64,000 nucleotides of DNA from Diacronema lutheri (Eukaryota > Haptophyta > Pavlovophyceae > Pavlovales > Pavlovaceae), in assembly GCA_019448385.1 (NCBI GenBank), contig JAGTXO010000053.1, positions 62,001-126,000 of the forward strand, in the 5' to 3' direction. Under the pieces are notes generated by a model. The model searched no databases and was not told the DNA's origin. It worked only from the letters and a program-made list of their open reading frames with translations. Each line of letters starts with the position of its first letter. Within the stretch, counting starts at the first letter, position 1. Both the position numbers and the translations under genes were made by a program. Of this stretch, positions 1,568 through 61,954 are shown piece by piece.

Positions 1568-1855
1568 GCCGACCCCCTGCGCCATGAGCGCCACCTCAAG
1601 CGAGCGCATGGGAGAACACACTGCGCGCGGGCGCGCGACTGGACGCGCGCTGCGCGGCGAGTGGAGCGATGAATCGCAGGCGCGCGTGGATGAGCTGCGC
1701 ATGGCCTCGCGCGGCCATCGCGCCGACGTTCCAATATACGACATTGGGTACAATATGGAATTCCCGTTAAGCGTCGTTTGTATCATCACCTGGAGCCTGT
1801 GGGTCCGGACACTCCGGGCCCCACCGACTTTCGCCTCTCACTTTTGCGCGCTCCG

Positions 1856-16191: not shown

Positions 16192-16228
16192 CGGCCGCGC
16201 GCGCGCAGCGCGCGCGTCACGCCGACGA
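16192..16228 (-). repeat. Short exact match to the Fanzor gene
   Basis: About 34 bases here are identical to about 24539-24573, where they encode GVTRALRARG of the Fanzor frame. Part of the match is CG-rich, but CAGCGCGCGCGTCACGCCGA is specific. It joins directly to a dehydrogenase remnant on one side and, on the other, to sequence shared with 23402-23427. Confidence 0.6.
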
Positions 16229-16740
16229 GGATGGCGACGGGCAGGCTGGCGAGCTCAGAGCAGAGAGACGCCACGTCGTCGGGCTTGGAGAGGTCGTACG
16301 GGAACATGCGCACGTCCGCCTTGCGCTTGGCGTGGACGAGCGACAAGGCCTGCAGCTCCTGCTGCAGCGCCGCGAGCCTGTCGCCGCGGCGCGCGACGAG
16401 GATCAGGTCGAAGCCGCGGCACGCGAGCTTTCGCGCGATCTGAGCGCCGATGCCGGACGAAGCTGGCGCTGCAGCAGGCAGAGCGCGGCCTTGCACGCGT
16501 ACAGTGTGGGCGGGATGTCGCCGGAGAAGGGCCAGCGGTATCTGCACGCGTACAGTGTGGGCGCGGCCTTGCACGCGAGGAGGATCGACGCGAAGAAGGA
16601 CCAGAGAGCGAACGCGCCCACACTGTACGCGAGGACCAGCAGCGTGGCGAATGGAGAGGTCGAAGGGATCTTGAGCGGCGCCGTCTCGGCCGGAGCCGAG
16701 GCGTGCTGGTCGTTCGAGCGAGAGTCGGGCGGCCACTCAA
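16229..16740 (-). pseudogene. Short-chain dehydrogenase/reductase fragment (3-ketoacyl reductase-like)
   Basis: Reads SSGIGAQIARKLACRGFDLI, ARRGDRLAALQQEL and FPYDLSKPDDVASL, ending LPVAILV. These are the glycine-rich NAD(P)-binding loop, the second strand and the acidic-loop region of the SDR fold, as in membrane-bound very-long-chain 3-oxoacyl-CoA reductases. Upstream, in another frame, a hydrophobic helix (FATLLVLAYSVGAFALWSFF) fits the N-terminal membrane anchor of that group. The fragment stops just where NNVG would follow and continues into Fanzor-matching DNA. The catalytic Ser-Tyr-Lys half is missing. Small duplications (TLYACKAA) sit between anchor and Rossmann part. Probably a broken gene copy. 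Confidence 0.6.
16487..16635. repeat. Short local duplications within the dehydrogenase remnant
   Basis: GCACGCGTACAGTGTGGGCG occurs at about 16494 and 16543 and as an inverted CCCACACTGTACGCG at about 16617. They lie between the membrane-anchor part and the nucleotide-binding part, which suggests a patchwork of small duplications. Confidence 0.7.
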
Positions 16741-17033: not shown

Positions 17034-17488
17034 TCACGCGCTCGCCGGTGCTCCCTCCTCGTCCGGCTCCTCATCAAGCTGGAACTCGTCGCACCCATTG
17101 TCGAAGATGGGGTCCTCCTCCTCATTGACCTCGATGTCCTCGTCGACGAGGCCAAAGGCATACCTTGAGGAGTTGTGCAGGCCATGGTTGATGCACGGCA
17201 CCCAATCGATGCCCTTCTCCTTGGCGAGGTCGATGCAGCACTTGCGCACGTTCGCGCCCGAGTCGGTCGCGATAGACGCGATGTCCGAGTTAGTGAGGCC
17301 AAACTCTTGGAAGCGAGACTCGAGGTGCTCCTTGATCCCGACAGCTGTGTGCGCGCCGAAAAACTTGACGACACCCAGCTTGAGCGTCTCGAGCTCGCCA
17401 GTCTGCGGATCGGCAAAGCGCAGCGCCAACGAACTGTATGCGTCGCCGGAGTGGCGCGCGGTCCACATGTCCGTCGTCGCGTGCGCCC
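17034..17488 (-). pseudogene. hAT-family transposase fragment
   Basis: Reads TTDMWTARHSGDAYSSLALR, then HTAVGIKEHL, IASIATDSGANVRKCC and WVPCINHGLHNSSRYAFG, followed by an acidic stretch. This is the RNase H-like core of hAT transposases. The first catalytic Asp lies in TDMWT, the second acidic position in TDSGANV, and CINH matches the usual C..H.L motif. The BED finger on the N-terminal side and the dimerisation domain on the C-terminal side are absent. The frame itself is uninterrupted, so this is a truncated copy rather than a heavily mutated one. A different hAT copy lies at 21200-23010. Confidence 0.75.
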
Positions 17489-17494
17489 ACGCCA

Positions 17495-17680
17495 GGCCGC
17501 TGTACGAGCTCTATGCGAAGCGCCTGCGCGAGTTCACCAAGGACGACGAGCTCTGCCAGAAGATCCCCGCGCTCTCGCAGGGCGCGCGCCGTGGAGATCG
17601 AGAACCTGTGGGCGGATGACGAGGACGATGTGCCCGCAGCTGATGCGCCGCCCGAGAGTCCGAGTGCAGAGGCCGAGTGA
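17495..17680 (+). pseudogene. C-terminal coding fragment, unrecognised
   Basis: On the plus strand LYELYAKRLREFTKDDELCQ is followed, after a frame change near 17585, by AVEIENLWADDEDDVPAADA and a stop (TGA at 17678-17680). The composition is protein-like and ends in an acidic tail. No family recognised. It lies back to back with the hAT fragment. Confidence 0.3.
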
Positions 17681-17724: not shown

Positions 17725-17907
17725 GAGATCAGGTACTGACCCATCTCAGCCGCCGCTGCAAAGCGCACCGCCGCCCGCCGCCAGCGTGGTAAGCGCCGCG
17801 ATGCCGCCCGCGTGGCCGCGCACGCGCGCCTCGCCGCCCCCAAACCCACCGACCGGGGCGAAAAGTACGTTGTTCGTGGTGCCGGCGCAGTCGATGAGCA
17901 GGGGCGG
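17725..17907 (-). repeat. Single diverged unit of the 189-bp repeat family
   Basis: Read on the minus strand it starts CCGCCCCTGCTCATCGACTG and contains CAACGTACTTTTCGCCCCGG, then GGTGGGTTTGGGGGCGGCG. This matches the last unit of the array at 49044-49988, including its divergent continuation (ACCACGCTGGCGGCGGG). Confidence 0.85.
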
Positions 17908-18093
17908 CGGGGCGCGCGGAGCGCGGCCACCAGAGCGCGAGGGCGCAGCCGTCGCAAGCAGAGCAATCGTCGGAGAACAGGCCACGTGGCAAATGTGAAC
18001 GCACGGATACCGCGAGAGCTGCAAAGCCGGGCAGCAGGTGTAGTCGGCCAGGCTTACCTTCCATGTCTCCGTCGAATGGCCCAGCCTGCCCAC

Positions 18094-24045: not shown

Positions 24046-24063
24046 TCACTGGCTGCCGACGCG

Positions 24064-24100
<37 letters not shown>

Positions 24101-27100
24101 CCGTCGTCGTCGCCGTCGTCGCCGTCGTCGTCGGCGCCGTCGTCGCCGCCGCCGTCGTCGTCGTCGTCGTCATCGTCGCCGTCGTCGCCGCCGCCGTCGT
24201 CGGCACGCGCCTCCCACACGGCTCGCACCAGCTCCCAGCGATCGGGCGTCGAGGTGATGTCGTCGGCCCGCCCGTCGAGCTGCGCGATCATGTCGAGCAC
24301 GTCGTGGTAGATGCCGCGCCCGCCCGCCAGCTCGCGATGCTCCACCTTGCGCCCGCCGTCGCATCGCTGGCAGCGCAACAGCGCGTGCACCGTCCGCGCC
24401 GAGCCGTCCGCCGCGGGCAGGTAGTCCTGCTCGACGACCGCGCAGCAGCGCTGCAGCTTGCCCGGCGCGACCTCGCGCACGCGCGAGCAGTGCATGCTCG
24501 TGTACGGTCGGGCACGTAGACCGCCGCCACGCCGCGCGCGCGCAGCGCGCGCGTCACGCCGACGAGGAAGGCGGGCGGCGCGCCCTTCGGGTGCGCGCCC
24601 GGCCGCCGGCGGCCGCGCACGCGGCCGGCGCGCTGGTCGTGCAGCCAGTCGCCGACGCAGACGAGCAGCTGCGACGTCTTCACGCCGTCGACGCAGTGCG
24701 CCTTGATGATCGCCTCCGCCGCGTGCGCCGCCGCACAGCCGCGCGCCGCGCCGTCGCTGCGCCAGCGCTCGCGCCGCCGCGAGCGCGGGAGGTAGACGTC
24801 CGCGCCCGCACGATCGCGCACCGCCTGCCTAGCGTCGCGGCCGTGGAGGAACTCGTCCTTGTCCACGGCGTTGGCGCTCGGCAGGTCCCCCAGCGCCGCC
24901 TCGAGCGCCTCGACGACGAATTCGCCCTGCGCGTCCGTGCGCGTCGCGCGCCGCGCGTTGAAGGTCGCGCCCGCGCGCCGCGCAAAGCCGGCGCCGTGCG
25001 CGCGCTGCCGCTGCGTCATCTGCGTGCTGATCGCGCCGCGCCACGGGAGGCGCGAGAAGGTCGTCAAGCCGCACGGCCCGGGGTCGCCGCCGACGACGTG
25101 GCGCAGGCCCGCGCACCACAGCTGGTGCAGCTGCCGGGCCGACGCGCGCAGCAGCGGAGCGCGCGGCTCGCGGCAGCGGCGCGCGAGCCGCTCGCCCTCG
25201 CGCGCGTCGGCGGCGGCGGCGTCGTCCGCGTCCGCACCGTCCGTTGCCGGCGCCGCGCCGTCCGACGGCTCGACGGGCGCAGGCACGGACACATCGCAAA
25301 ACGTGTGCACGCCGACGACGTCGGTCACGGCCGACGTGACGGGCGCTCGGCCCGGCAGTCGCGCGGCTGGCAGCGGCGTGCAGCCGACCCACGTCCGCCG
25401 CGCGTCGGCGGTGAGGCCGGCGGGCGGCCGCTCGCGCCCCGCGTAGTCGAAGGCGCGGTTGGAGATGTCGAATACGAGCGCAAAGACGCGGTACCTCATC
25501 CGCTCGTCGGTCACCATCGGCGTGCCATTCGCTTGGAACGTGACGGCCGGCTTGCCGTCGTGGTTGGGCAGCCCGCGCGCCCAAGCCCGCACGGCGTCTT
25601 GGTCCGTCTCGCTCGCGCTGGCCCAAATTGCACCCGCGTCGAGGCGCACGTTGCGCGGCACCTGCGCCTGGCGCCGCGGCAGGATGCCGTACGGCGGCGC
25701 GGTGCCCGTCAGCTCGGTGTAGATGCCCGCGAGCCGGCGCAGCAGCGCGTGGCCCTCTGGCCAATACGCCTCGCGCTTGAGGAAGTAGTTGGTGTAGTGG
25801 CGGGTGCCTGCCCACTCCTCGGTCGGTGCGCACGTGTAGTTGACGCCCTTGAGGACCATCGCGCCCAGGTGCGGCTTGAGCGCCAGCGGCACGCTGCCCG
25901 CCGCGCCGCTCGCGTCGCCCGTGAGCAGCCGCGTCGAGAGCGCCTTGGCCAGCTTGGCGCGCTCCTCGCGCCTGCGTGGCGCACCCGCGTCCCGCTCGAC
26001 AGCGCAGCGCACGATCGCCTGGAGCAGCGGCGACAGGACGCGCCGCGGGTGCTCGGTGCACGCCGTCGCCACTTGCGTCGCCGACGCGAGCATCGCAAGA
26101 GAAAGACGCTTCTGGCTGCACGGCCGGTTGGCGTCCATCACGCGGCGGCATGCATCCTCGTACGCGCGCCGGAGACGATCGCTCGGGCCGCTGAGGTTAT
26201 CCCTCGCGCCACCGATGCTCGAAAAGACGGCTCGCACCACCTCAAGGTCTGGGACGGTCGTCTCGTGCTGCGTCTCGACGCGCGCCTTGTAGTTGAGCGC
26301 GTCGTACACGCGCACCACCGTCTGCTGCACCTCCACAACGATCGCGTTGATCCAGTCGCGCGCCTCGTCGTGCACCGCGTGCGGCCCCGTGTTGCGCGTC
26401 GAGCCGCGACCGCCCTTCGCGCGGGCGGCGCGGCCCACGTTGCGCGCGCCCTCCTCGTCCCCCGCGACGGCGCCGCCCCGGTCGGGCGCGGGCGTCGCCG
26501 AGCGGCCGCGGCCGCGGCCGCGCGCCGGTTGGGGCGGCGCCGAGCGGCCGCGACCGCGCGCCGAGGCTCCGCGCGCCGGCGAGCGGCCGCGGCCGCTCGG
26601 CGAGCGTCCGCGCGCCGGCCGTGGCTGCGCGGCCGGCAGCCGCTCGTCCGGCGGCTCTCCGGGCGGCGGCAACGCGTCGGGCATCATCTCGTCTGGCTGC
26701 TCGTCGGGCGGCGGCGGCGCGTCGACCATCTCCGCGTCGGGCTGCGCGGCCGCCGGCTGGAGCGGCACGCCGGCCGCCGCCGCCGCGCGCTCTGCGAAGC
26801 CGGCGCACGCGTGGCCGTCGCCGTCCGGGACGCGCGCCGCCTGCAGGCCGCGGCCGTCGCCAATGCCGTGCTCGCCGATGCTGCGCGTCATCAGCCCGTG
26901 CAGGCAGTCGAGCACCGCCGCGCAGCGCGCCGCGCGGACGCCACCCTCGCCCCCGCGGGCGCGCACGAGCAGCTCGACGTGCCCCTCGCGCAGCGCAGCT
27001 GGCCGCGCGCCCGCGTGCTCAGGCGCAGCGCCGAGCTCGTCGGCGAGGCCCCGGGCGAGGGCGCACGTCGCGTCCGCCTCGCCTGCAAAGGCGTAGCACA

Positions 27101-30100
27101 CGAAGTTCGCCGCCGCCTCGCCGCGGTCGCGCCTCGGCCGATCGGCGACGAGCAGCCCAGCGGGCGCGTCGGCGTCCGCAGGCCACAGCACGACGGCGAG
27201 CAGCGCGCACGCGCCGCCCAGCGCCGCGCGCCCGCGGGGCGCGAGCCCCTGCCCGACGACCGGCGCGAGCGCCACGCGCAGCGTCCGCTGCCGCGACGAG
27301 TGCCGCGTGAGCCACGCGCACGCCGCCGCGAACGCGTCGGCGCCGACGTTGCCGCCGAGCGCCGCCATTTGCGCGAGCAGCGCGTCGTACGCGGCGCGCG
27401 CGGCGTCGGCGACGCTCTCCACGCTGGGCCCGGCCGCGGCGCCCTCGTCGGTAGCATCGGCGTCGGCGCGCGCCAGCGCCACGGCACCGTCGGCGAGCAC
27501 CCACTCGACCACCGCCCCGAGCTGCCGCCGCACCGCGTGCAGGCCGCAGTCGACGCCGTGCGCGTCCGCGAGCGCGGCGACCGCGTCGACGCCGCCCTCG
27601 GCGTCGGCGGCGGTCGCGACGCGCTCGAGGCAGAGCAGCGCGGCGACGCGCGAGTTGGACGCGCGGATCGGTAGCGGCGCGCGCTGCACGCCGAGCAGGA
27701 CGTTCGGCGCGAGCAGCCGCGCCGCGCGCTGCAGCGCGTCGTGCGCGCGCGCGTGCGCGCGCCGCGGCTCGCCGGTCGCCGGATGCGCCGCGCGCGTCGT
27801 CACAAAGCCGTTCGCGCGCGCCACCACGCCGTCGGCGCCGACGTGCAGCGCGAGCAGCGCCGCGCCCACCTGGCATGCGGCGATGGGCACGAGCACGAGC
27901 GCCGGCCTGCCCGCCGCGTCCGCGGCGCGGAGCGCGCGCGCGAGCGCGGGCTCGGCCGGCGCGGCGGCCGTCGCCGCCGTGGCCGCCGCCGCGCTAGCGG
28001 CCTCGAGCGCGCGGAGCTGGCCGGGCGCGAGCACCACGCACGCCCGGTCCGCCAAGGTCTGGTCCGTCGCGATGCGCGCCGCCTCCGCAGCGAAGACCGC
28101 GTGCGGCAGCTCGGGCCCGCGCTGTTGCGCGATGGCGCGCCGCTGGCGCTCGGTGAGGGGCGCGCCGCGGTACCGCGCCTCCTCGCGCCCGCCGAGCGAC
28201 GCGTCGTACGCGACGGCGAACGCCGCCGCGCGCGCGGCGCGCGCGTGCGGCGGCGCGGGTAGGTGCGCGAGCACCCCGGCGCTCGGCGCGGCGCGCGCGC
28301 GGCGCTGCGCCACCGCGCGCGCGTCGCCCGCGGCGCGCTCCGCGCTCAGCCGCCGCGCGTAGTCGGGAGTCGGGCGGCTCGCCGCGCGCCGCGCGGCGGC
28401 GGCGCGCGCGCCGTCCGAGCCGGGCATGTCCACGCCGTCGCGCCAGTCCCTCTTGGCCGAAAACGGGTCCACGGGCGCGTCCGCGAGCCGCGCCGATCGG
28501 CGGCGCGCGGTGGGCGGCTCGACGTCCGACTCGCTGCCCGAATCGCTGTCCAAGTCGCTGTCCGGCTCGCCGTCCGGCGGCTCGCCGCACGCTCCGCCCG
28601 CTGCACCGGCGGCCTCGCCCTCGCGCGCGCGCTTGCCGCTCGCGCCCGCGCCGCCCGCGCCGCCGCCGCCGCTCGCGCGCGCGCCGCTCGGGCCCGCGCC
28701 GCCGCCCGCTCCGGCCGCCGCGCCGCCCGCCGCTCGAGCCGGCGCCTTCTCCGGCCGTTCGACACGCTCGTAGAGCAGCGCGTACGGCTCCCACCCGCCG
28801 TCGTCGGCGCCGCCGCCGCCCGCGACTGCGTCCGCCACGTCCGACCAGCCCGCGGCCTTCGCCAGGCCGCCTGCAAAGCGCATCCAGATGCCGTCGTGTC
28901 GCGCGAAGGCCACCACCCGCGCCGGCGCCCGGCGGCTGCGCACGAGCACGCCGCGGAGCAGCATCAGCGTCTTCACGCGCTCGGCGGGCCCGCCCGCGTC
29001 CTCACCGATTGCCAGCGCCTCGGCCGGCGCACCTGCGCCGCCGCCGCCTCGATCGTCGAGCCGCACGCCGCCCGCGAGCGGCACCGGCGCGTGCTCGTGC
29101 TGCGCGAAGCTGACGACGACCATGCGGCCCGGCTCGGAGGGCCCACCAAGCGCGTCTTCGCCGCACAGCTCGTCCCGCAGCCAGTCAGCGAACGCCTGGG
29201 GCGTGTCCAGCCGCGCGACGGCGGGCGACGGGTACTGCACGGTGGTGGCCGCGAAGTCGTCGCCCAGCAGCTCACCGGCGAGCTGCGCGACGAGCGCGGC
29301 GGGATCGACCGCGTCCGACGCGGTGCCGTCTGTCGCGAGCTTGCCTGCGAGCTCGGCCGCGGCGGCCTGCGCCGCGCCCTCTGCCGCTCTCTCCTCTGCG
29401 ATCGTTGCCTTCGGATCGTCCGCGTTGAGCGCGGGCGCGCGCAGGTGGCGCAGCACGCGCCACACGCACTCGGCGATGGCGGCGCCCGTACTGCCGGTCT
29501 CGCCGGCGGCTGCCCCGCCGGCTGCAACGACGCCATCGAGCGCAACGCTGGTGCCGAGCAGCGCGTGCAGCGCCGCGCCGAGCGGTGCGGTGACCCTGTC
29601 GCTCGCCAGGAGCGCGAGCGGCCGCCGGCTCGCGCCGATCGCCACGCCTCGCGGCACGTTGCGCAGGCGCTCGTACTTGCGGCGGCTGTGGCTCGCTCGT
29701 GGCTTGCGCCGCTCCGCAACGGCCGCCGCGAGCGCGAGCTGCGCACGGTGCGCGCGCGCGAGGCTCCAGAACCGCGCGACGCGAGGCAGCGCGATGTCGA
29801 TCCACCGCGCGTCCTTGCGCACGACGTGCGCCACTTGCCGGCGGGCCATCGGTTTGTCCGGATCGTCCTGCACGTAGACGCACGAGGCGACGCCGTGGCA
29901 GAGCATGCCGAGCTGCAGCTGCGCCATGTGCACGCGCGGCGGTCCGCGGGAAAGTACGTTCTGGGTCGTCTTGACCTCAACTTTGCGCAGCGTGTTGTCG
30001 TCGGGCGGGAGCCACAGCGCGTCCGCCGAGTGCGCCAGCGGCGCGCGCGGCGGCGCGTCCTTCCACGGCACGAGCGGCAGGTTGCGCACGATCGTGCCGC

Positions 30101-30485
30101 CGTGGTCCCGGACGAACCGCTCGAGCGCGATCGGCTCGTTGACGCGGCCCCTCTCCATGGCGGGCGACGTGTAGCCCCGGACCACCGCGCCGCGCGCGAA
30201 CTGTTCGACGAGGCGGTCGAACATCGCGCCGTCGCCCCCAATGACGCTGTGCACGATGCTGCCGGTTGTGTAGTTGAGGCGCTCCGCGAGCCACGCGGTG
30301 GTGTTCTGCGCGGGCGCGTTGGCGTCGAGCCGCGCCAGCACCGCTCGCAGCGGCGTCGCACCGCCGCCATCGCGCTCGAGGTCGGCCGCCAGCTTCTCGA
30401 GCGCGGCGCGATCGTTGAAGGCGTCGATGATGACGCCAGCCGCCTGGCCGCGCCTGGCGGCTGATGGTGGCGCGAGCGCCGACAC
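24046..30485 (-). CDS. YqaJ nuclease + USP-like + Ulp1-like + Fanzor (TnpB-like) fusion, copy 1
   Basis: One frame of 2,065 codons opens at 30485. Residues about 100-240 are YqaJ/lambda-exonuclease-like: E111 and E117 (ERGRVNEPIA), D155 (SADAL), E170-x-K172 (KVEVKTT), Q189/Q191 (AQLQLGML). A USP-type C-terminal half follows (RMVVVSFAQHEHAP, then DGIWMRFAGG and YALLYERVE), then an Ulp1-like region (LVLVPI, H near 881, VDCGLHAV with Cys near 980). After an RG-rich linker the rest is Fanzor-like: RuvC-I GGDPGPCGLTTF (Asp near 1801), LLVCVGDWLHDQ, and VGVTRALRARGVAAVYVPD. The zinc finger (C..C, RCQRC) and the RuvC-III region lie in another frame (24046-24495), with a one-base shift near 24508, in the codon that is Glu in copy 2. 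RuvC-III reads HRELAGGRG instead of HRDYNAARN, so DNA cleavage is probably lost. Upstream is the OTU-like frame. Confidence 0.7.
24064..24200 (+). repeat. GTC triplet repeat encoding an acidic tail
   Basis: GTC/GCC triplets, giving a run of Asp with a few Gly and Ala on the minus strand at the C-terminus of the Fanzor frame. The second Fanzor copy has a similar Asp/Gly/Glu tail at about 47960-48050. Confidence 0.9.
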
Positions 30486-31084
30486 GTCCGCCTCGGCGGT
30501 GGGCGCATCGCTCGGACGAGCGGCGCGCGCGCCGCCTCGCGCGGCGCGCGCGCCGCCGCCGTCGCCGAGCGTCCCTCCGCCGCGCGCGCCGCCGCGGCCA
30601 CCGCCGTGCGCACCGCCGCCGCTGGGGCGGCGGCCACGCGCGCGGCTCGGCGCGTGGTCCTCGTCCTGTGGCGCGCGCGCGCGCGCGCGCCGCGTGGGCG
30701 TCGCGTCGCTCGCCGCAGCGCGCTCAGCGCTTGGTCTCTCGCGCGCGCGCCACGCCAGGCGCGCGCACTCGCGCGGGCCAGCGCGCGCGCGCGCGACACC
30801 CAGCGCCCTCCGTGTGCGCCGCCGCGCTGCGCACGCGCGCGGCGCGCGCGCAGCGCGCGGCGGCGGCGCGCGCGCACCTCCTCCGCTCCCGCCTCGGCCC
30901 TGGCGCCCGCCGGACCCGCCGCGGCGGTGGCGCCAGCGGCCTCGACGTTTGCCCCGCCAGAGCCGCTCGGTCCAGCAAGCGCCTCGGCGCCCGTCCGTGC
31001 GGACGGACGGTCGTCAGCCTGTCGCGCACGCGCGCGCAGGGACAAGGGAGCGTCCGTGGGCGCAGGCGCGCGGAAGGGGGGGAA
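30486..31084 (-). other. Arg/Ala-rich linker region upstream of the YqaJ module
   Basis: One minus-strand frame reads ADDRPSARTGAEALAGPSGS just after a possible acceptor (GCGACAG/GCTGACG near 31014), then turns Arg-rich. It may be an exon joining the OTU-like frame to the YqaJ frame. Confidence 0.3.
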
Positions 31085-31116: not shown

Positions 31117-31479
31117 TGCGTGGGTGGGTGGGTGGGTGGGTGGGTGGGTGGGTGCGTGCGTGTGTGCGTGTGTGCGTGTGTGCGTGCGTGTGTGCGTGCG
31201 TGTGTGCGTGTGTGCGTGTGTGCGTGTGTGCGTGGGTGGGTGCCTGGGTGGGTGTTTGGGTGGGTGGGTGCGTGGGTGCGGGCGTGGGTGGGTAGGTGGG
31301 TGGGTGGTTGGGTGCGTGGTTGGGTGCGTGCGTGCGTGCGTGGGTGGGTGGGTGGGTGCGTGTGTGTGTGGGTGGATGGATGCGTGGGTGGGTGGGTGCG
31401 TGGATGGATGCGTGGGTGGGTGGGTGCGTGGGTGTGCGCGTGCGTGCGTGCGTGCGCGAGGGGGCGGTTGGGTGCGTGG

Positions 31480-31518
<39 letters not shown>

Positions 31519-31698
31519 TTCGTGCGTGCGTGCGTGCGTGCGTGCGTGCGAGCGTGCGCCCGTGCGCCCGTGCGTGCGCCCGTGCGTGCGCCCGTGCGTG
31601 CGTGCGCCCGTGCGCCAGTGCGTTCTTGCGTGCGTGCGTGTGTGCGTGCGTGCGCGCATGTGTGCGTGCGTGCGTGCGTGCGCCCGTGCGTGCGCCCG

Positions 31699-31740
<42 letters not shown>

Positions 31741-31742
31741 CG

Positions 31743-31819
<77 letters not shown>

Positions 31820-31878
31820 GCGTGCGTGCGTGCGTGCGTGCGTGCGCCCGTGCGTGCGCCCGTGCGCCCGTGCGCCCG

Positions 31879-31924
<46 letters not shown>

Positions 31925-31959
31925 CGTGCGCCCGTGCGCCCGTGCGTGCGCCCGTGCGC

Positions 31960-31992
<33 letters not shown>

Positions 31993-32120
31993 CGTGCGTG
32001 CGCCCGTGCGTGCGTGCGCTCGTGCGTGCGTGCGTGCGTGCGTGCGCGCGTGTGTGCGTGCGTGCGCGCGTGTGTGCGTGCGTGCGTGCGACCGTGCGTG
32101 CGTGCGCCCGTGCGTGCGCC

Positions 32121-32152
<32 letters not shown>

Positions 32153-32237
32153 CGTGCGCGCGTGCGTGCGCCCGTGCGCCCGTGCGTGCGTGCGTGCGTG
32201 CGTGCGTGCGGATTTCTCGGGGTGGTGGGGGGGTTGT

Positions 32238-32284: not shown

Positions 32285-35200
32285 TCGTCGTGCGTCGAGT
32301 CGTGTGCGGCAGGTGTCGGCGGTTGCGGCGCGAGGTTGCCCAGCCTCTCGCCGGCCCACACGCGCGTCGCGTCCGCCAGCCCTCGCGATCCGGCGCCCGG
32401 CTTGTTGCCCGCGCGCCCTGCCGTCGCCGCCTTGACGGCGTCGAGTGCGTCGTGCGCAGCGCGCGCGAGCAGCTCCATGCTGCGCCTCATGGACTCGAAC
32501 GCGTCGACGTCGCGCCCGCGCAGCGCGCAGCAGAGGTGCGGCGTGCGCACGGAGACGATGGCGCCGCGCTCTCCCTCGGCGGGCCAGAAAGCGAGCGTGC
32601 CGACGCCGCCCGCGTCGCAAAGCGGCGCGACCGCGCCCGGCAGCTGCTCGCCCTCGTCGCGGGGGCGTGCCACGCGGCCGAGTAACCACCGGCCGCTGTC
32701 GCGCCCACCGGCAAACTCGAACGTTGCGGCGAGGGGGTAAGACGTGCACACGGCCGCGAGCACCGTCGCGTTGATGGCGCCCGCCGTGGCGTCGCCCCTC
32801 CGAGCGCTCGCCACGCTCGCCGCGTCGTCACCGCCGCCCGTGTCCACGGCGGCGGCCGCGTCCGCGCCCGCGCCCGCGCCGCCGCCGACCGCACGCCCCC
32901 CTGCCGCGTCGCGAGCGCGTCCGCCGTCGCACGGGCATGCCTGCCGCGTGACCGCGCCGTCGCGCGCGCAGTGCAGCGCCTGCAGCTGCGGGCAGAACCA
33001 GAGCGGATTGGCCGCCTCGAGGCAGAGCGCGACGATGCCGCGCCCCCACCCGCGCTGCGCGTCGTCGAGCAGGTGCTGCGCGAGCTTCGACGTCTGCGCG
33101 TCCGCGCGCGCGTGGCCGCCCGCGCCCTCGGTAAAGAGGCCGCCCGCCACGGCGGGGCTCGGGCAGCGGCCGAGCATGACGAGCAGCGGCGGCGGCGACT
33201 GGGGCGGGTCGAGCAGGAGCTCGGCTGGCCGCACAAACGTGCGCTCGCCGCCTGGCTCGCAGTGCACGAGCGCCGCGCAGCATTGCGCGCCCGTGAGCAG
33301 CGCGACGGCCGCGAGCGCGTGCGCGAGCCTGTCGCCGGCGGTCGCCGCGCTGGCGGGCGGCGCGAGGCGCTGCAGCTGCGCGTCGTCCAGCTGCAACGTG
33401 CCCGGCCGCGCCGACAGGATGGCCACGTAGTAGGCGCGCAGCAGGTCGCGCGGCAGCTGCCGCGCCGCCCGCTCGGCCAGCGCAGCCTTGCAGCCGGCGA
33501 CGTTGCCATCCAGCGTCGCGGCGCGCCCGCCGCTGATCAGCGACACAGGCGCGTCGGCCAACGCGTCGAGCGCACACGCGGCCGCGGTGATGCCCGCTCG
33601 TCCGCGCACGATGCGGTCGATGTCGTGCGCGGCGAGCGCCAGCTCCTCGTCGCTGGCGTCGAGCCGCCCGGCCGGCGCGCCGGGCGCCACGCCACCCGAG
33701 CGCGCCACGCCCAGCGCGCGCGCGGCCATTGCGCGCGCCGCGTCGCAACCGGCGGCGGCGGCCGCCGCGCGTGCGAGCGAGGTCAACGCGCGGTAGCGCG
33801 TGCGCGCCGCGACGATCGCGAGGACCACGGCGGTTGGCATATCGAGCGCGGCCTCGACGACGACGACGGCCTCCTGCAGCATGAACGCGTCGTGGTCGGT
33901 CGGGAAGGCGACGCCGAGCGCGGCGCGCACGAGAGCGCCTCTGTGCGCCGTGCCGCTGTCCGGCGCCGCATCGCTGGCCGCGACGCGCCACACGTGCACG
34001 ACGGTCGACGGCTTGGCGATGTCGCGTTGCACCGCGAACACCTCCGGCGGCAGAGCGCCGCTGGCCGCGTCCGAGCGCGCGCAGACGACGACGGCCTGCA
34101 GCCCGTCGCGCAGCGCGTTAACCACGGCCTTGGCGGCCGCCTGATCGACGCCAGCCGCGCGCGCGCGGGCGGCGGGCGCCTTGCCCGCCCTGGCGCGGGC
34201 AGGCGCCGCCTCGACTCGCTCGGTGCACACGATGGCCGCGCCGTGCACGGCCATCGTGCGGCTCGCCGCGCCGAGGACGTCGCGCGCGGCCGCCGCCAGG
34301 TTGGTCGCGCCGGCGCTCGAGCCGGCGCCCGAGCCGCGCGCCGCGTCGCCACAGGCGCGCTCGACCATCGCCGACCACAGCGCGTCGCTCGTCGCCGCGA
34401 TCGGCGCGCAGCTCGGCGGCGCCTTGCGCGCGGCCTCGGCGAGCGCCTTCGCGCTCGCGTCGTCCGGCCGCCGGTACGCGACCAGCAGCTCGACGAGCGC
34501 CTGCTGCACGTCGGCGAGCGCGCGCGCGGGAGGGGCGGCGGCCGGGCTCGCCGCCGTGCCGCCGCCGCTCGAGGCGTACTGTGCCAGCCGGTGCGCGAGC
34601 GCAAGCCGGCCGCCTTGGACGACCTCGTCGCCGCCGGTCGCCCCCGGCTGCGCCGCACCTTCGGCGGGAGTCGCGGCACGGCGCATGCTCGCGAGCACGT
34701 CGGCCTCCGCACCCGCCGCGTGCTCGGTGCACACCGTGCGCACGAGCGGCTGATTGCCGTGCGCGCTCGCAGCATCGGCCGCAGCCGCGGCCCGAGCGCC
34801 GCCCGCTGCGCGCGCGCGCGCGCCCGCGGCGGGCAGCTCGCCCGACACCACGAGCGCGCGCGCGTGCTCTGCGCCGTCGAGGCTCACCGCGATCAGCATG
34901 TAGGCGCTCCGCTTGACCGCGCGCGCCTCGCGCTGCGTGCGCAGCAGCTGCTCGGCGATCTGCGCGTCACGGTCGCCGCCCGCCTTGGCGAGCTCCTCGC
35001 ACACGCGTGCGCCGAGCACGACGACGTGCGGTCGCTCGGCCGCGTCTGTGCGCGCGCGCCGCTTCTTGGATGGTGGCGCGGCCGCCTCCGCCACGCCGGT
35101 TCGCGCGAGGTGAAAGGCGACGTCGAATGCGACGGCGTCGAGCGCGCCGGCGGCCGCCGACGCGAGCGCGCACACCGCATCGGGCAGCCGGCGCGCGCAC

Positions 35201-36588
35201 TGCCGCGCCACGCGGAGGGTAAGGGTAGGCACGCCGTCGGCGGCGCGCGCCGCGAGGCATGCCGAGTCGAGACGGTGGAGCGGGTCGCCGCCGGATTTGC
35301 CAGCCGCCAGCGCGTCCGACGCCTCCCTCGCGCGCGCGGCGGCCGCGCCCAGCAGCGCCGCGCGATCCGCGCGGCTGGGCGCCTGCACGGCAGCCGCGGC
35401 CGGCGCGGCCACCGCCGACGCCACGTTCGCGCCGGTTGGGTCGCGCGCGCCGCGGCGCGTCTTCGCCACGCCGACGAGCACGTCGTCGTCACGCAGAAGG
35501 CGGCTCGGCGGCGCGCCGACCGGCCGCGCGTCGGCCGCCAAATTGCGCCCCCACGCCCACGGCGTAGCATGGCCGGTCGACTCGGCGCGGCCACCGCCCG
35601 CACCGCCGCGCGGGCGCCGCGCGGCCGGCGGCACCCTCGCGCACACGGCGGCCAGCGGGGGCGGGCCGCGGGCGTCCGCCGCGCCGCGGCCGCCGGCGGC
35701 GTGCAGCGTCCACTCGACGTCCGCGCGCCCGCGCGCGACCGCGAGCAAAATGTCGATCTCGAAGGCGCCGGCAAGCGCCGCACTCGCGAGCTGCGCCGGC
35801 AGCGGCCGGCCGCGCGCGCCACCCTCGCGCAGCGCGTCAATCTCCTCGGCCGTCCAGCCTTCGTGCACGTGCGCGTTGGCGCCGAGCCACTCAACCAGCG
35901 CGACGCGCATCGCGCCCGCAGGGCCGAAGCGCGCCGCCGTCGCAGCAGGCAGCGCGGCAAGGACGGCAACGAGCAGGCAGTCGTTGCCCACGTGCGCCGC
36001 GCCGCCGCCGGCGTCGGCGCCGTGTGCGGGCGGCGACTGCGCGGCGAGCGCGCGCGGCCGCGCGGCCGCGCCGGCGTACGCAGCGAGCGCGGCGAGCTCG
36101 CCGCGCGCGCCGCCGTCTGCGGCTGGCGCGGTCTTCGGCTGCACGACAGCGGCCGGGGCAGCGCAGCCCCCGCATGTGTGCAGCACGCACGGCGAGATCG
36201 CCGTCGCGCGGCGAGTCGCGGCCACGCCGCTCGCCACGCCTTCGCCGCACGGCGCGCGCACGACTGGCGACAGGTCGTTGACGCCGTCGGCGCCGCCGCG
36301 GGTGGGCTCGCCCGCAGGTGCGGGCGCGTCGGTAGCGCATGCCGCGCGCAGCTCGTTCGGCGGCGCGCGCACGCGACGCCGAGCCAGGTAGTAGGCGCGC
36401 CGATCGGCGCGCGGTCCGCCGCACAGACGCGCGCCTTTCCTGCGCAGCGCGCGTGGGAATGCCGCCGGGCGCAGTGCGGGCTCTGCGGCGGCGGCGACGG
36501 CGGCGGCGCGCCGGCTGCGTGGGCAGGCGGCGACGTGGCGCCATCGTCGGAGGCACCGCCGTCGGTGGCGGGCGTTCCGACAGCGCAC
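32285..36588 (-). CDS. Large OTU-like protein, first half of the nuclease/protease locus
   Basis: A minus-strand frame of about 1,430 codons before it enters the satellite. Near residue 200 HVGNDCLLVAVLAALPA resembles an OTU nucleophile helix; VEWLGANAHVHEGWTAEEID and AFEIDILLAVARG follow as the next OTU blocks; STGHATPWAWG near residue 340 could carry the His. Later parts include ARDVLGAAS and HDAFMLQEAVVVVEAAL, which share a pattern with the 63-kb region of the right-hand locus. Composition is extremely Ala-rich. At its end GAT/GTGCGC is a possible donor leading into the satellite, so this and the YqaJ-Fanzor frame may be one gene. Enzyme activity is unproven; the OTU call is by pattern only. 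Confidence 0.45.
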
Positions 36589-38470: not shown

Positions 38471-40060
38471 AGCCGCGCGCACGCGCTGGCCCGCAGCTAG
38501 CGCACGCGCGCGCACGTGCGCGCGCGCGCGCACGCGCCGATGCCCCACTGGCCGCGGAATGCCGATCGGCCGGCCGGATGGCGGGCCGCGGGCGCGCGCG
38601 CGCGCACACGTCGCCATGCTCGTTTGGCGGCGCGCTGAAGAGCGGACGGAGGGTGGCGTCCGCGCGGAGCATCTCGGTGAGCCACAGCGCGAGCGGCACA
38701 AGGTCGCGCTTTGGATCGGCCCCTGCGAGTAGGCCCGTCGCCTGCCGCGCGCGCGCTGCGGCGATCAGGTGGAGCGGCCAGCAGACGGCGCGGGCGCCGC
38801 GTGCGCGCGCGCACCTGCGCCACGGCGCGCGTGCGCTCCCGACTGGTCGCGGACGCAGGCCCGCTCGCGCCCCCCGCGCCCCTGACGCCTTGCGACATCT
38901 CGCGCGCGCTCGCTTGCTCGTCGCGGGGCGGGCGCGGGACGAAGAAGTCGTTGCCGCGCACGTCGGCGGCGGGTCCGACGTCGACGAGCGGCGCGCGCGC
39001 GTTCGGTTCGGGGCCAACGAGCAACGCGTTGTTTGCATCGACCAGACGCGGAATGACCGCGCGGCGCGCCGCGTCGGTCGTCGCGCACGCCCGCGCACAG
39101 TGGCCAGCGCGATGCCGCGCGCCGCGCACAGCGCGTGGATGTCGAGCTGCCGGCGGCGGAAGAGCCCGGGCATAGCGCACAGCTTGGCGAACAGCCCGAG
39201 CAGCGCGAGGAGCCACGGGTGCGGCAGCCGGAAGACGCGCGAGAAGCGGCACGGGTCGAACACCGCGGCGACGAATGGGATACGGCGGATAGCGCGCCGC
39301 GCGCAAGCGCCTCCACGTCGCGGCGGCGGCCGAAGAGCCACTCGAGGTGCAGCACGCCGGTGCGCGCGCACAGCTGCGCTGCTTCGGGCGCGTGCGCGTC
39401 GAGGCCGATGCGCCGCGCGAAATCGAGGAGCGTCGGGATGAGCTCCGGCGTACGCGCAGCGCGCCACGCAGCCGTCAGGCTGACATAGAGGGGCGCGAAT
39501 GCGTTGGCACCGGCGGAGCCGGCGCCGCGGTAAATGGACACGAGGCGCTCGGCGTCCGTCGCGCCCGAGTCGAGGCTCTCGCGCACGGCCTTGGCGCACG
39601 CACCAGCCTCGCGCACGGCCTTGCCCGTGCCGTGCGCGAGGGGCCGCTCGCGCCTGCTGATGGGGCGGCGGCGCGCGCCGCGGAGGCGGAGGCGGCGGCG
39701 CGAGCTTCGCGGGGTCAACCGCGCGAGCTTCGCGGGGTCAACTGGCGTGTGTCGCGAAAATCCGCTTGCGATGAGTCGGGCACCCACGCCCCGACCCTTA
39801 AGGTCGAGGCACAGCGAGAACTTGAGCGCGCGGGGCCCGCCCGGCCTGGGCGCAACCGCGGTCGAGCCGCCTGAGTTGATGACGGCGCAGGTCTGGATGA
39901 CGACTACCTCGAAGACGTCAGGGCCAAGCACGTGCTCGAGGAAGGCAGAGGTGGCGTTGTGCGCACTCGGCGAGCGGTTGGACGGCGGCTCGGCGCTCCG
40001 AGCAAGCCCGTCCGGGCGGCGGCCGGGCAGCGGCGTGCGCACCTTGGAGGCGACTAGCAC
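38110..40060 (-). CDS. NOT1/CNOT1-like gene (CCR4-NOT scaffold), partial
   Basis: The key block (about 39130-39290) reads IPFVAAVFDP, then RVFRLPHPWLLALLGLFAKL, then LDIHALCAARGIAL. It matches the NOT1 signature PFVAKVLE, VFRPPNPW...LAEL and FEIEVLCKNL at the end of the MIF4G-like domain, which binds the CAF1 deadenylase. Upstream pieces (from an ATG at 40058-40060) read FEVVVIQTCAVINSGGS and AERLVSIYRGAGSAG; downstream pieces read RDLVPLALWLTEMLRADATL and DAQSRQEEETFRQMMRAP. They lie in different frames. One join is explained by the intron at 38259-38609; another near 38727-38897 fits an acceptor CTCGCAG/GGGCC. The switch near 39300 is unexplained. NOT1 is normally about 2,000 residues, so this is partial, diverged or a decayed copy. 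Confidence 0.45.
38259..38609 (-). other. Probable intron with a 33-C pyrimidine tract
   Basis: On the minus strand the donor is GGCGAC/GTGTGC and the acceptor GCCGCACAG/TCGCGC, phase 0, 351 bp. The tract 38435-38467 is 33 C on the coding strand. Removal joins PPNEHGD to SRRELDAQ. Confidence 0.6.
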
Positions 40061-41038: not shown

Positions 41039-41328
41039 GCTCCGCCAACGTGTCAGTGCCGCTCTCCGCGAGCATCGACCTCACCGCCGCCGACTGCTCC
41101 GCGTCGCCCGACGTATGGTCGCCCCGCCCTCCTGCCCTACTCCTGGTGCTCATTCAGTCAGGGGCGTGCCCACCATCTCCTCGCGAGGAGATGGTGGGCA
41201 CGCCCCTGACTGAATGAGCACCAGGAGTAGGGCAGGAGGGCGGGGCGACCATACGTCGGGCGACGCGGAGCAGTCGGCGGCGGTGAGGTCGATGCTCGCG
41301 GAGAGCGGCACTGACACGTTGGCGGAGC
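41039..41328. repeat. Perfect 290-bp palindrome without a spacer
   Basis: 41039-41183 and 41184-41328 are exact reverse complements by eye, centred on TCTCCTCGCGAGGAGA. The right-hand arm breaks at GTTGGCGGAGC/CCTACTCC. The last codons of the upstream gene are mirrored on the other strand. Confidence 0.9.
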
Positions 41329-41733: not shown

Positions 41734-41859
41734 GGCGCCGAAGGTGGGAGGAATCCACCCGTATGAGCGCGTCTGAACGTGCGCGGACGGCCGTTGGCTC
41801 CGCGCCCTTTCACCCACGGTTTGCGCGCCAACGGACCCTCCCTCCGCAGGCGCCGCGCA

Positions 41860-43216
41860 TCGTCTCAGAGGCGGTCGGTGTGGTACGCCGCGCGCATCGT
41901 CAGCGCCGCGGCGTCGAGCTCGGCGGGCGAGGGCGCGTACGTGACGCCGCTCAGCACCTCGTCCGCGCCCGCCCTCGTCGCGCTCGCCGTCTCCGCAGTG
42001 CACGAAGGCGGCGTCGTGACACGCGAGGCTACACGCGCTGCAGGTGCCTTCGCGCGCTGCATCGTCCGTCTGCCGGTCCGAGGGCACGCTCGCACAACAT
42101 GTACCCCTAGATTTTCTCTGAGCTGCTGCCCGACGAGATCTTCGGCGGCTGCTCGTCGACGGGCACTACCGCGTGCGCATCCTGCGGCGCGTCGCCCGCC
42201 GCCGCCATGCGGCCGAGGCCAACTTTTGGCTCGACGGCGGCCCCGCCGACTCGGTGCGTCCTCGCTTGAACGTCCCCACCATCTGCCCCGAGCGCATCTC
42301 CGAATACTCGCCCACCGCCCTTCGGACGCCGTGGCGGCGCTGCTCAAGGTGCGCGAACCCGCACTACGCGTACCTCCCTTCGGACGCCGTGGCGGCGCTG
42401 CTCAAGGTGCGCGATGAGATCCTCTACGCAAGCCACGAGCTCTTCTCCATCAAGCGCCGCATTTACGAGCTCCGCCACCAGCTCGGCGGCTCCATCGCCG
42501 CGCTCAATTACCTTGTGACGAGGCCCTTCGGCTGCGACGGCAGGTGCACGCGCGGCGTGTCGCTCTCCGATGACCTCGCGAACTCGCGCGAGCACATCAA
42601 GACGCTCTACGACGATCTCGCGTGGTACGACGAGCGCCTCCTCATGAAGGGCGCATCCATCGAAGCGCTCAAGAACCAGATCGCGCAGATGCAGCACGAG
42701 ATCTGCGTGCTCCACGCCGAGATGTCATCACACGCTCCGAGTTCGCCCAAGGTCTACACGAACGACAGCGAGGCCACCAACGCCATGGATCACTGCCAGT
42801 GCACCGAGCTCGACGCCCACAACCGCCTCGAGGTCGCGCCCGCGCCCGCGCCCGTGCCCGAGATGCCCGCGCCCAAGGAGCCCGTGCCCGCGCAGGCCAA
42901 GCCGGGCAGCGAGTCCGAGAGCGTCGCGGCGCAACCCGCGCAGGCAGAGCCGCGCACCGAGCCCAAGTGCGCCAACGTGTCGCCCAACTCGCCCAAGCAC
43001 TCGTCGGTCGACAGCCAGGCCACTGATTGCAAGACCTAATACGGACTCACCAGGGTCGCCGCCTGCAAGCGCCTCGAGTTCGCGTCCGCGCCCAAGTCCG
43101 TGCAGGCCGAGGTCGCCAAGTCCAAGCGCGCCAAGATGCCGGCCACTGGCGGATCGACTCGCTGGCTGCGCAACACGGCCGCGCGCAACACCCGCAGCTC
43201 GGCCAAGGGCAAGTAG
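41860..43216 (+). CDS. Repeat-unit gene, copy 1 (coiled coil plus basic tail)
   Basis: Paralogue of the minus-strand gene at 55432-56730. Shared blocks in order: an upstream region about 200 bp long (GTCAGCGCCGCGGCGTCGAG), RVRILRRVARRR with NFWLDGG.ADSV, an Ala/Pro/Glu linker (PRTEPKCANV, SVDSQAT), and a basic tail (RAKMPATGGSTRWLRNTA, RSSAKGK). This copy alone shows a coiled-coil block, DLANSREHIKTLYDDLAWYD and IEALKNQIAQMQHEICVLHA. A TAA at about 43036 stops the frame some 60 codons before the end used by the other copy; the tail remains readable. The 5' part also changes frame near 42110-42170. Function unknown. The 3' side runs without a break into repeat R2. Confidence 0.5.
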
Positions 43217-43361
43217 CGCTGCCCGAGCAGCAGCGGCGCACGGTATGCCGCAGCGAGCTCAGCCGCGAACACTGTCCGAGGCCGCGCCTTCCAAGGGGTG
43301 CACGCGCACTCGGCGCGGTCCGGTCAGTCAGAGCGCCTCAGCTTGCGCGATGCCAGTTGCG

Positions 43362-43413
<52 letters not shown>

Positions 43414-47701: not shown

Positions 47702-48960
47702 TCAAGTAAGCGAGGGCCTGGTCGCCGTTGGTGTAGCTCCAGCGCTGAACGGGGATCCAGCGTGGGTTGCACGTTGCGGCTGTGCGAGGCTGTGCACGTC
47801 GCGCACGCGCGCTGTGATTGGCGCGTACGAGTCTCCAACGCGCACGAGCAGGTTGACGGGCGGCTTGGCGTCGAGGCGGGCGAGCGCGCCGGCGTCGACG
47901 ACCATCCAGTGGTTGTTGGGCAGGTGATCGAGCTGCCAGCGGACGTACGCCGCGTCGGGGTCGCCGCCGTCGCCGCTGCCGTCGTCGTCGTCGTCGTCGC
48001 CCTCGTCGTCGCCGTCGCCCTCGTCGTCGCAGTCGTCGCCCTCGCCGTGCACCATGCGCTCCTCACGCTCCCACACCTCGCCGCGCGCCCACCAGGCGAG
48101 CACGAGGCCAAAGCGCTCAGGCGTCGACGTGGTGTCGCGCCCGGCCGCGTGCGCCGCAATGTCGTGCACGTCATAGAAGATGTTGCGCGCGGCGTTGTAG
48201 TCGCGGTGCACGGGCTTCTTGCCGCCGTTGCACGCCGGGCAGATGACGAGCGCGTGCACCGTGCGCGTGCCGCCCTTTGCCACGGGCAGGCGCGGGTTCT
48301 GCGCGAGCACCGCGCCGCAGCGCTGCAGCCTGCCGCCCTTGGCGAGCCGCGGCATCGAGCAGTGCATCGACGTGTACGGCTCGGGCACGAAGACGGCCGC
48401 GACGCCGCGCCGCCGCAGCTCGCGCAGCAGCCCCACCTGGAAGGTCCGTGCCCTTGTGGTCGTGCAGCCACTTGCCCAAGCACACGAGCAGCCGGTCGCG
48501 CGTCACGCCGTCGACGCAGTGCGCCGCGATGAGCGCCTCGGCGACGCGCGCCGCGTTGGACCGCCCGCCGCTGTCGCGCCGCCAGCGCTCCTTCCGGCGC
48601 GCTGGCGCGTCGTACACGTGCTCGGCGGCGCGCTCGCGCACCCGCGCGCTCTCGCGGTGGAAGGCGAGGAGTTCGCCCTCGCCGAGCACCTTGGCGCTGT
48701 GCATCTCGCCAAGCCGCGCCTCGTCCGCCTCCACGCTGAGCTCCTCGCGGCGTCCGACGATGCGCACGTGCCGCCGCGCCGCGTTGGTCTGGGCCGTCTC
48801 GCGCCCGAAGCCCGCGGCGCGCGCGCGCGCGCGCTGCGTGAACTGCCGCCAGACGGCCGCCCGCCCGACGTGCGCAGAGTAGGTGGTGATGTTGCCCATG
48901 TTCGGGTCGGCCGCGACGACGACCGCCTCCTCCTCATCGATCGCCCGCCGCAGCTCGGAG
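47702..48960 (-). pseudogene. Fanzor (TnpB-like) nuclease, copy 2, 5'-truncated
   Basis: Minus strand. RuvC-I reads VVVAADPNMGNITTYSAHVG. Then come ALIAAHCVDGVTRDRLLVCL with GKWLHDHKG, LRRRGVAAVFVPEPYTSMHC, and a zinc-finger region with Cys pairs (HC, RC, ICPAC). RuvC-III reads HRDYNAARNIFYDVHDI, the canonical D.NAA.NI of TnpB and Fanzor. The Glu in VPEPYTS is where Fanzor proteins are known to place the relocated RuvC-II acid. All three acids are therefore present, unlike copy 1. An Asp/Gly tail and a 75-residue end (LPNNHWMVVDAGALARLDAK) follow. The frame changes once near 48440. The 5' side stops at R2 sequence near 48960, so the N-terminal half, including the guide-binding lobes, is missing. 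Confidence 0.75.
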
Positions 48961-48961
48961 C

Positions 48962-49038
48962 CGGTCCGGTCAGTCAGAGCGAGCGCCGCAGCTTGCGCGA
49001 TGCCAGTTGCGACCCCCCCGGAATCCGCCATTCGATTC
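48962..49038 (+). repeat. Repeat R2, copy b, with only 7 C
   Basis: GGTCCGGTCAGTCAGAGCG, CTTGCGCGATGCCAGTTGCG, then CCCCCCC (49013-49019), GGAATCCGCCATTCGATTCT. Copy a has 49 C and copy d 31 C at the same position. It ends where the 189-bp array begins. Confidence 0.85.
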
Positions 49039-49043
49039 TACTG

Positions 49044-55255: not shown

Positions 55256-55289
<34 letters not shown>

Positions 55290-61919: not shown

Positions 61920-61954
<35 letters not shown>

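What the first reader, a model, noticed from the sequence alone, without database searches (positions are those of the whole stretch)
24046..30485. A Fanzor nuclease in one frame with a YqaJ nuclease and USP-like and Ulp1-like modules
Seen: a single 2,065-codon frame carries a YqaJ pattern (D155, E170-x-K172, Q189/Q191), a USP-like half, an Ulp1-like H/C pair and a Fanzor RuvC-I, with the zinc finger just beyond in another frame. Known: Fanzor proteins are RNA-guided TnpB relatives carried by eukaryotic transposons, and YqaJ enzymes are phage-type exonucleases. Inference: this is a composite mobile-element polyprotein pairing a guided nicker or cutter with an exonuclease and ubiquitin/SUMO-type proteases. 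I do not know a described protein with this order.
Basis: partly seen in the sequence, partly recalled or inferred. Interest (0 to 1): 0.85.

Follow-up and report, generated by a model that had tools for sequence, protein, structure and literature searches.

The report
Exonuclease fused to a worn Fanzor
In the DNA of an unnamed complex-celled organism, one long reading frame joins a DNA-chewing enzyme of a phage-like type to a worn copy of Fanzor, an RNA-guided DNA cutter of jumping genes; such a natural pairing would be new, but it was seen at one place only.

Summary
The frame is real: 2,241 open codons on the minus strand (31013-24288), with coding-type base periodicity in one frame from about 30450 to 24510. 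Its upstream end holds a RecE/YqaJ-type exonuclease (PHROG 434, E=4.7e-17) with aligned active-site residues. Its downstream end holds a Fanzor-derived part: RuvC-I "DPG" in the long frame, C4 zinc finger and RuvC-III stretch in the next frame. It is homologous to a second Fanzor fragment in the window (47840-48938), whose zinc finger passes the Pfam cut-off. In the first copy the frame changes at the catalytic glutamate codon and RuvC-III "RD" reads "RE": probably a decayed copy, though an assembly error at the frame change cannot be excluded. The USP-like and Ulp1-like modules found no profile or solved-structure support. No relative with the same order was found in capped searches; the one database relative covers the Fanzor part alone, and the own genome could not be searched. 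Best reading: the polyprotein of a large eukaryotic mobile element coupling an RNA-guided cutter to an end-resecting exonuclease. The fusion is fairly likely; the mechanism is inference.

The parts
24288..31013 (-). Open frame of 2,241 codons (2,065 from the GTG at 30485) carrying YqaJ and Fanzor-derived regions ('exon B')
   Evidence: codon-position G+C; 0 of 300 Markov resamples as long
29760..30320 (-). RecE/YqaJ-type exonuclease domain; MERGxxxEP 30158-30132, D 30023, E-x-K 29978/29972, Q 29921
   Evidence: PHROG 434 E=4.7e-17, PHROG 149 E=4.7e-10; TIGR03033 E=0.0015, below cut-off; Pfam YqaJ E=0.0026, below cut-off; PDB 3syy E=0.0015 with aligned active-site residues; positions
28752..29093 (-).
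   Evidence: no Pfam hit; PDB search of 28752-29696 gave only a TAL-effector repeat protein (no single stretch passing) and a reductase; AlphaFold pLDDT 40.5
27402..28226 (-).
   Evidence: no C48 hit in Pfam and no PDB hit
26400..26750 (-). Low-complexity R/G/P/S linker before the Fanzor-derived part; in-frame ATG at 26729 could start a Fanzor-only isoform
24510..26390 (-). Fanzor-derived region in the long frame, RuvC-I 'VGGDPG' with D at 25085
   Evidence: 79% identity over 292 aa to P0002; 41-45% to copy 2 RuvC region, E about 1e-8; positions; no Pfam or PDB hit of its own
24508..24513 (-). Frame change at the codon aligned with the alternative RuvC glutamate of copy 2 (VPEPYTS)
24046..24507 (-). 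C4 zinc finger (YTSMHC..QRC..CQRC), RuvC-III-like 'HRELAGGRG', acidic tail and stop, in another frame
   Evidence: 52.5% identity, E=1.6e-28 to copy 2; alignment; coding periodicity
32343..36390 (-). Upstream coding stretch ('exon A') of about 1,350 codons with similar third-position G+C; no known domain; possibly spliced to exon B
   Evidence: codon-position G+C; Pfam on pieces gave nothing better than Urease_beta E=0.27; no PDB hit for 35100-36390
31117..32210 (.). Tandem (CGTG)n-type repeat flanked by poly-C tracts (minus strand) between exons A and B, intron-like
   Evidence: EF-2 intron with GT..poly-C..AG for comparison
47840..48938 (-). Second Fanzor fragment (copy 2): RuvC-I 'AADPNMG' in frame 48174-49037, zinc finger and 'HRDYNAARN' in frame 47705-48502; no YqaJ motif beside it by a crude pattern
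   Evidence: PF07282 E=4.9e-7, 30.2 bits vs cut-off 26.3; NCBIfam guided_TnpB E=0.0038, below cut-off

Best explanation
The locus is a partly decayed copy of a large eukaryotic mobile element. Its protein carries, in one reading frame, a RecE/YqaJ-type exonuclease (active-site residues kept) and, about 1,630 residues further on, a Fanzor (TnpB-type RNA-guided nuclease), with poorly characterised alanine-rich regions between. Proposed mechanism (inference): the Fanzor, loaded with a guide RNA from the element's end, cuts an empty or homologous site, and the tethered exonuclease resects the broken ends, favouring repair from the element-bearing copy, a cut-and-resect version of the cut-and-copy proposed for TnpB. 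Shown: the shared frame, the exonuclease family and residues, the Fanzor homology, the altered Fanzor site here. Inferred: one mRNA and protein, splicing to exon A, mobility, and the coupled action. My probabilities: shared protein about 0.7, mobile-element origin about 0.8, cut-and-resect mechanism about 0.3.
For: One uninterrupted coding-type frame from about 30450 to 24510. Exonuclease at E=4.7e-17 with MERGxxxEP, D, E-x-K and Q aligned, while the three other segments of the same protein in the same call gave nothing better than E=0.25. Fanzor part homologous to copy 2, whose zinc finger passes PF07282. RuvC-I DPG, and D-to-TSxxC spacing of about 195 residues, within the published 125-275. 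A 79%-identical relative of the Fanzor part elsewhere and a second fragment nearby fit a repeated element. YqaJ exonucleases are already known as transposon partners, as a separate ORF of ISL2EU (PMC4482050, passages).
Against: Seen at one locus; no relative with both domains in protein searches (about 8,000 candidates scored in each) or in viral-contig scans (0 of 4 gave a confirmed relative). Copy 2 and P0002 show Fanzor sequence without YqaJ, but both are fragments. No transposase hit in the segments scanned; no terminal inverted repeats stood out (one search shows only the 25 longest of 412 pairs). No RNA evidence. The frame change, and RE in place of RD, argue that this copy cannot cut. 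Copy 2 is DPN and P0002 DAG at RuvC-I, so those copies deviate too.
Confidence: 0.55

Rival explanations
1. Two neighbouring or nested mobile genes: a YqaJ-bearing element gene and a Fanzor gene starting at the in-frame ATG at 26729, in the same frame by accident or as separate transcripts.
For: An in-frame ATG at the start of the low-complexity stretch that precedes the Fanzor part; YqaJ and Fanzor were described separately in the transposon papers whose passages I read; copy 2 and P0002 have Fanzor sequence without YqaJ.
Against: No stop codon and no loss of coding periodicity between the two parts, apart from a weakening in the low-complexity linker at 26400-26639, where separate genes would have a stop and untranslated sequence.
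Confidence: 0.25
2. A fused protein in which the Fanzor part is no longer a cutter but an RNA-guided or DNA-binding anchor that brings the intact exonuclease to DNA.
For: Exonuclease active-site residues kept while the RuvC glutamate codon and RD are altered; the zinc-finger cysteines aligned with copy 2 are kept.
Against: The frame change also removes the zinc finger from the long frame, more like decay than adaptation. pN/pS near 1 between copies 1 and 2 is uninformative: a comparison pair from an RCC1-repeat gene gave the same ratio.
Confidence: 0.12
3. Chance open frame or assembly artefact joining unrelated pieces.
For: G+C near 78% makes long open frames common: another frame of this stretch reaches 1,138 codons. 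Indel errors are possible in such DNA.
Against: Length beyond all 300 resamples and strong periodicity in one frame; profile hit at the upstream end and homology at the downstream end.
Confidence: 0.06

Closest known systems
Fanzor1/Fanzor2 (eukaryotic TnpB relatives)
   Same: RuvC-I DPG, TSxxC C4 zinc finger, spacing, association with mobile DNA (PMC3627910 and PMC10711439, passages read)
   Different: Catalytic glutamate codon disrupted, RD reads RE, and joined in frame to an exonuclease; 'exonuclease' does not occur in the main texts of PMC3627910, PMC10711439 and PMC10432273
YqaJ / RecE / lambda-exonuclease family
   Same: Profile match and aligned active-site residues
   Different: Phage members are stand-alone or in recombination operons (recalled); here it sits in a giant eukaryotic frame, below the curated Pfam and NCBIfam cut-offs
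ISL2EU (PHIS) transposons
   Same: A eukaryotic DNA transposon with a YqaJ exonuclease ORF (PMC4482050, passages)
   Different: There YqaJ is a separate ORF beside a DDE/THAP transposase, and the paper's main text has no 'Fanzor'; no DDE transposase hit in the segments scanned here
Engineered Cas-exonuclease fusions
   Same: RNA-guided nuclease tethered to an exonuclease, giving larger deletions (PMC11471210, passages)
   Different: Man-made, with Cas nucleases; here a natural arrangement with a TnpB-type nuclease

Membership tests
Fanzor | RuvC-I aspartate, near-exclusively DPG | tested here: met
   VGGDPG, D at 25085; copy 2 is DPN, P0002 is DAG
Fanzor | Alternative RuvC glutamate six residues before the zinc finger | tested here: not met
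   Copy 1 changes frame at that codon; copy 2 has VPEPYTSMHC with E in place
Fanzor | [TS][TS]xxC C4 zinc finger (PF07282) | tested here: inconclusive
   TSMHC...C...CxxC present in copy 1 but in another frame, with no Pfam hit of its own; copy 2 passes PF07282; the two align at E=1.6e-28
Fanzor | D to TS spacing 125-275 residues | tested here: met
   about 195, counted across the frame change
Fanzor | RD (RuvC-III) after the zinc finger | tested here: not met
   HRE in copy 1, HRD in copy 2
Fanzor | Guide (omega) RNA | not tested
   Rfam gave 0 matches at gathering scores in the window, which does not test for a new guide RNA
YqaJ/RecE/lambda exonuclease | Profile similarity | tested here: inconclusive
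   PHROG 434 E=4.7e-17; below the curated cut-offs of Pfam (18.5 vs 22 bits) and NCBIfam (18.7 vs 68.05)
YqaJ/RecE/lambda exonuclease | Active-site D, E-x-K and Q in order | tested here: met
   aligned to 3syy; positions
USP (C19) | Profile match and Cys/His boxes | tested here: not met
   no Pfam hit; no C19 chain in the PDB search; the boxes were judged by eye only
Ulp1 (C48) | Profile match and His/Asp/Cys | tested here: not met
   no C48 hit in Pfam, no PDB hit; a DCG motif alone
ISL2EU transposon | DDE/THAP transposase, terminal repeats, 2-bp AT target-site duplication | tested here: inconclusive
   no transposase Pfam hit in the segments scanned; no terminal repeats stood out; target-site duplications not searched

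The most novel reading that the evidence does not exclude
A natural one-protein 'cut and resect' homing machine: a eukaryotic mobile element whose polyprotein fuses an RNA-guided Fanzor nuclease to a RecE-type exonuclease, so that each guided break is processed for copying the element by homologous recombination; active copies exist elsewhere in this genome.
Probability: 0.25. Interest if true: 0.88.

Novelty: new variant of a known kind. Interest (0 to 1): 0.6.

Why it matters
What Fanzors do for their elements is open. A natural fusion to a resecting exonuclease would point to recombination-based copying and make it testable, and would be a natural counterpart of engineered nuclease-exonuclease fusions.

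Tried and rejected
USP and Ulp1 modules: no support in Pfam or PDB; single-sequence AlphaFold on 28752-29696 failed (pLDDT 40.5). AlphaFold on the Fanzor part with 3 sequences failed too (pLDDT 35.3), so no fold search was run. Two short pieces (28752-28950 and 27490-27690) were sent in a wrong frame; I noticed on re-checking, do not count them, and repeated them in the right frame (frames printed).

pN/pS between the two Fanzor copies (near 1) was rejected as evidence of neutrality, because an RCC1-repeat pair gave the same ratio; the comparison is uninformative at this third-position G+C.

Terminal inverted repeats for the 24-36 kb element: none stood out (one search shows only the 25 longest of 412 pairs). 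Target-site duplications were not searched for. Coding-frame scores used a table trained partly on exons A and B, so they are not independent for those; the raw codon-position G+C is. The tblastn without composition correction was swamped by low-complexity matches, and only hits repeated with correction are used.

Literature (open-licence papers only): 'Fanzor' with 'YqaJ' 0 papers; 'Fanzor' with 'haptophyte' 1, not opened; 'YqaJ' with 'transposable element' and 'eukaryot' 13, one read in passages; 'Fanzor' with 'transposon' and 'eukaryot' 60, of which 30 listed and 5 read in passages, one of them also found; 'YqaJ' with 'Ulp1' and 'transpos' 1 giant-virus paper, not opened; 'Fanzor' with 'lambda exonuclease' 2, one read in passages; 'YqaJ' with 'ISL2EU' 2, one read in passages; 'Fanzor' with 'Ulp1' 1, not opened. 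No paper was read whole.

Full report
What is there. On the minus strand one open frame runs from 31013 to 24288, 2,241 codons (2,065 from the GTG at 30485). In DNA of about 78% G+C long open frames are cheap: another frame of this stretch reaches 1,138 codons. But none of 300 first-order resamples of 24046-31013 reached 2,241 (mean 662, largest 1,581), and about 16 stops would be expected in the coding part of the frame if codon positions were independent. Third-position G+C of about 0.9 with lower second-position G+C holds in the same frame from about 30450 to 24510, weaker in the low-complexity linker at 26400-26639, then passes to another frame down to the stop at 24046. Above about 30450 the frame shows no such signal, and the first in-frame ATG, at 30224, lies inside the exonuclease domain. 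The start is therefore probably in an upstream exon. A stretch with the same kind of periodicity lies at about 36390-32343 on the same strand, separated by a tandem repeat bounded by poly-C tracts. The EF-2 gene of the window shows an intron with GT, a poly-C tract and AG, so splicing across the repeat is plausible but not shown.

The exonuclease. The segment 29664-30392 matches PHROG 434, RecE-like recombination exonuclease (E=4.7e-17), and PHROG 149, exonuclease (E=4.7e-10). It also matches the NCBIfam lambda-exonuclease family TIGR03033 (E=0.0015, 18.7 bits against 68.05), Pfam YqaJ (E=0.0026, 18.5 bits against 22) and the solved exonuclease 3syy (E=0.0015). In the printed alignment to 3syy, AMERGRVNEPIA, the SAD aspartate, E-x-K and QLQ fall on like residues of the solved enzyme; that these form the active site is recalled family knowledge. 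Three other segments of the same protein gave nothing better than E=0.25. The exonuclease looks intact.

The Fanzor part. The segment 24291-26390 has no Pfam or PDB hit of its own. Its identity comes from three things. First, a second fragment in the window, copy 2 (47840-48938 minus): its zinc-finger piece passes Pfam PF07282 (30.2 bits, cut-off 26.3). It aligns with the copy-1 zinc finger at 52.5% identity (E=1.6e-28) and with the RuvC region at 41-45% (E about 1e-8); the DNA of the two aligns at 67% over 967 columns. A crude six-frame pattern for the TSxxC finger found these two places only. Second, the motif order of Bao and Jurka (PMC3627910, passages): D, then 125-275 residues, then [TS][TS]xxC and a C4 finger; here D at 25085, about 195 residues, TSMHC. 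Third, RuvC-I reads DPG, which Yoon et al. call near-exclusive to Fanzors (PMC10711439, passages). One relative was found in the 5.8-billion-protein collection, where 7,993 candidates were scored: P0002, 389 aa, 79% identical over 292 aa of the Fanzor part, on a contig of 2,523 bases in ENA. Its last hundred or so residues leave the frame, and 23 of them resemble 23289-23221, downstream of this locus (70% identity), as in a deletion copy.

State of the Fanzor site. In copy 2 the sequence VPEPYTSMHC carries the alternative glutamate six residues before the first zinc-finger cysteine, and HRDYNAARN carries the RuvC-III aspartate. In copy 1 the frame changes at that glutamate codon, and the RuvC-III stretch reads HRELAGGRG. 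So copy 1 fails two defining features and is filed as Fanzor-derived, not as a working Fanzor. Two cautions. An indel error of the assembly cannot be excluded for the frame change. And GtFz1 works with N in place of the third catalytic D (PMC11423790, passages), so E there is not proof of inactivity. Copy 2 has its own frame change and is DPN at RuvC-I.

The other modules. The USP-like and Ulp1-like readings found no C19 or C48 match: Pfam on long pieces at E up to 5-10 and on shorter pieces at E up to 1, PDB sequence searches (a TAL-effector repeat protein and a reductase; nothing), and a failed AlphaFold model for the USP-like stretch (pLDDT 40.5). They may be highly diverged, but nothing here supports them.

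Mobile element or not. For: two Fanzor-type loci in 64 kb, a diverged relative elsewhere, and the known habit of Fanzors and of YqaJ genes to ride on transposons. Against, or missing: no transposase hit in the segments scanned with Pfam, no terminal repeats that stood out, no search for target-site duplications. The own genome could not be searched.

How it may work. TnpB is thought to cut the sister chromosome so that the insertion sequence copies itself back by homologous recombination, and the same has been suggested as possible for Fanzors (PMC10432273, passages). A tethered RecE-type exonuclease would resect the break and favour that repair. Engineered Cas-exonuclease fusions show that tethering changes the outcome, with larger deletions (PMC11471210, passages). 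This is inference: neither the guide RNA nor any activity was tested. Rivals are two genes in one frame or a Fanzor-only isoform from the ATG at 26729, a guided but non-cutting anchor for the exonuclease, and an artefact.

Novelty. In the open-licence library no paper holds both 'Fanzor' and 'YqaJ'. YqaJ as a separate ORF of ISL2EU transposons is known (PMC4482050). The fusion would be a new variant of a known kind. It rests on one locus, hence interest 0.6.

Noticed in passing
window 60151-63990 plus: A stretch with coding-type bias in frames +2/+0/+2, running off the window end; by eye it has YqaJ-like and Ulp1-like motifs, but profiles and shuffles did not support this.
   Followed up: partly
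window 24531-24568 and 16194-16231, both minus: A 38-base exact match with sharp edges between Fanzor copy 1, just before its frame change, and the end of a short-chain-dehydrogenase-like piece (PF00106 E=4.6e-7); no such match in 100 shuffles. Possibly a copied repair patch.
   Followed up: partly
window 39102-39284 minus: CNOT1 CAF1-binding-like exon (Pfam PF16415 E=2.6e-6, below cut-off) upstream of exon A on the same strand.
   Followed up: partly
window 50653-53757 minus: Elongation factor 2 gene (Pfam) with a GT..poly-C..AG intron; marks the window as nuclear DNA of a eukaryote.
   Followed up: partly
window 1778-8728 plus: 2,317-codon frame with RCC1 repeats (PF13540 E=2.8e-21) and an internal 0.5-kb duplication.
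   Followed up: no
window 49043-49893: 189-bp unit in about 4.5 tandem copies, 98% matches, just upstream of Fanzor copy 2; related copies at 53954-54380 and inverted at 17749-17986.
   Followed up: no
window 41039-41328: Perfect 290-bp palindrome without spacer; hairpin, recent inversion or assembly artefact.
   Followed up: no
window 41822-43393 and 55258-56766: Inverted repeat of about 1.5 kb in two aligned pieces, about 80% alike, enclosing EF-2 and Fanzor copy 2.
   Followed up: no
window 17037-17498 minus: Stretch that looks like a hAT transposase by eye ('ATTDMWTA', recalled motif); Pfam gave only DUF659 E=0.13, below cut-off.
   Followed up: partly
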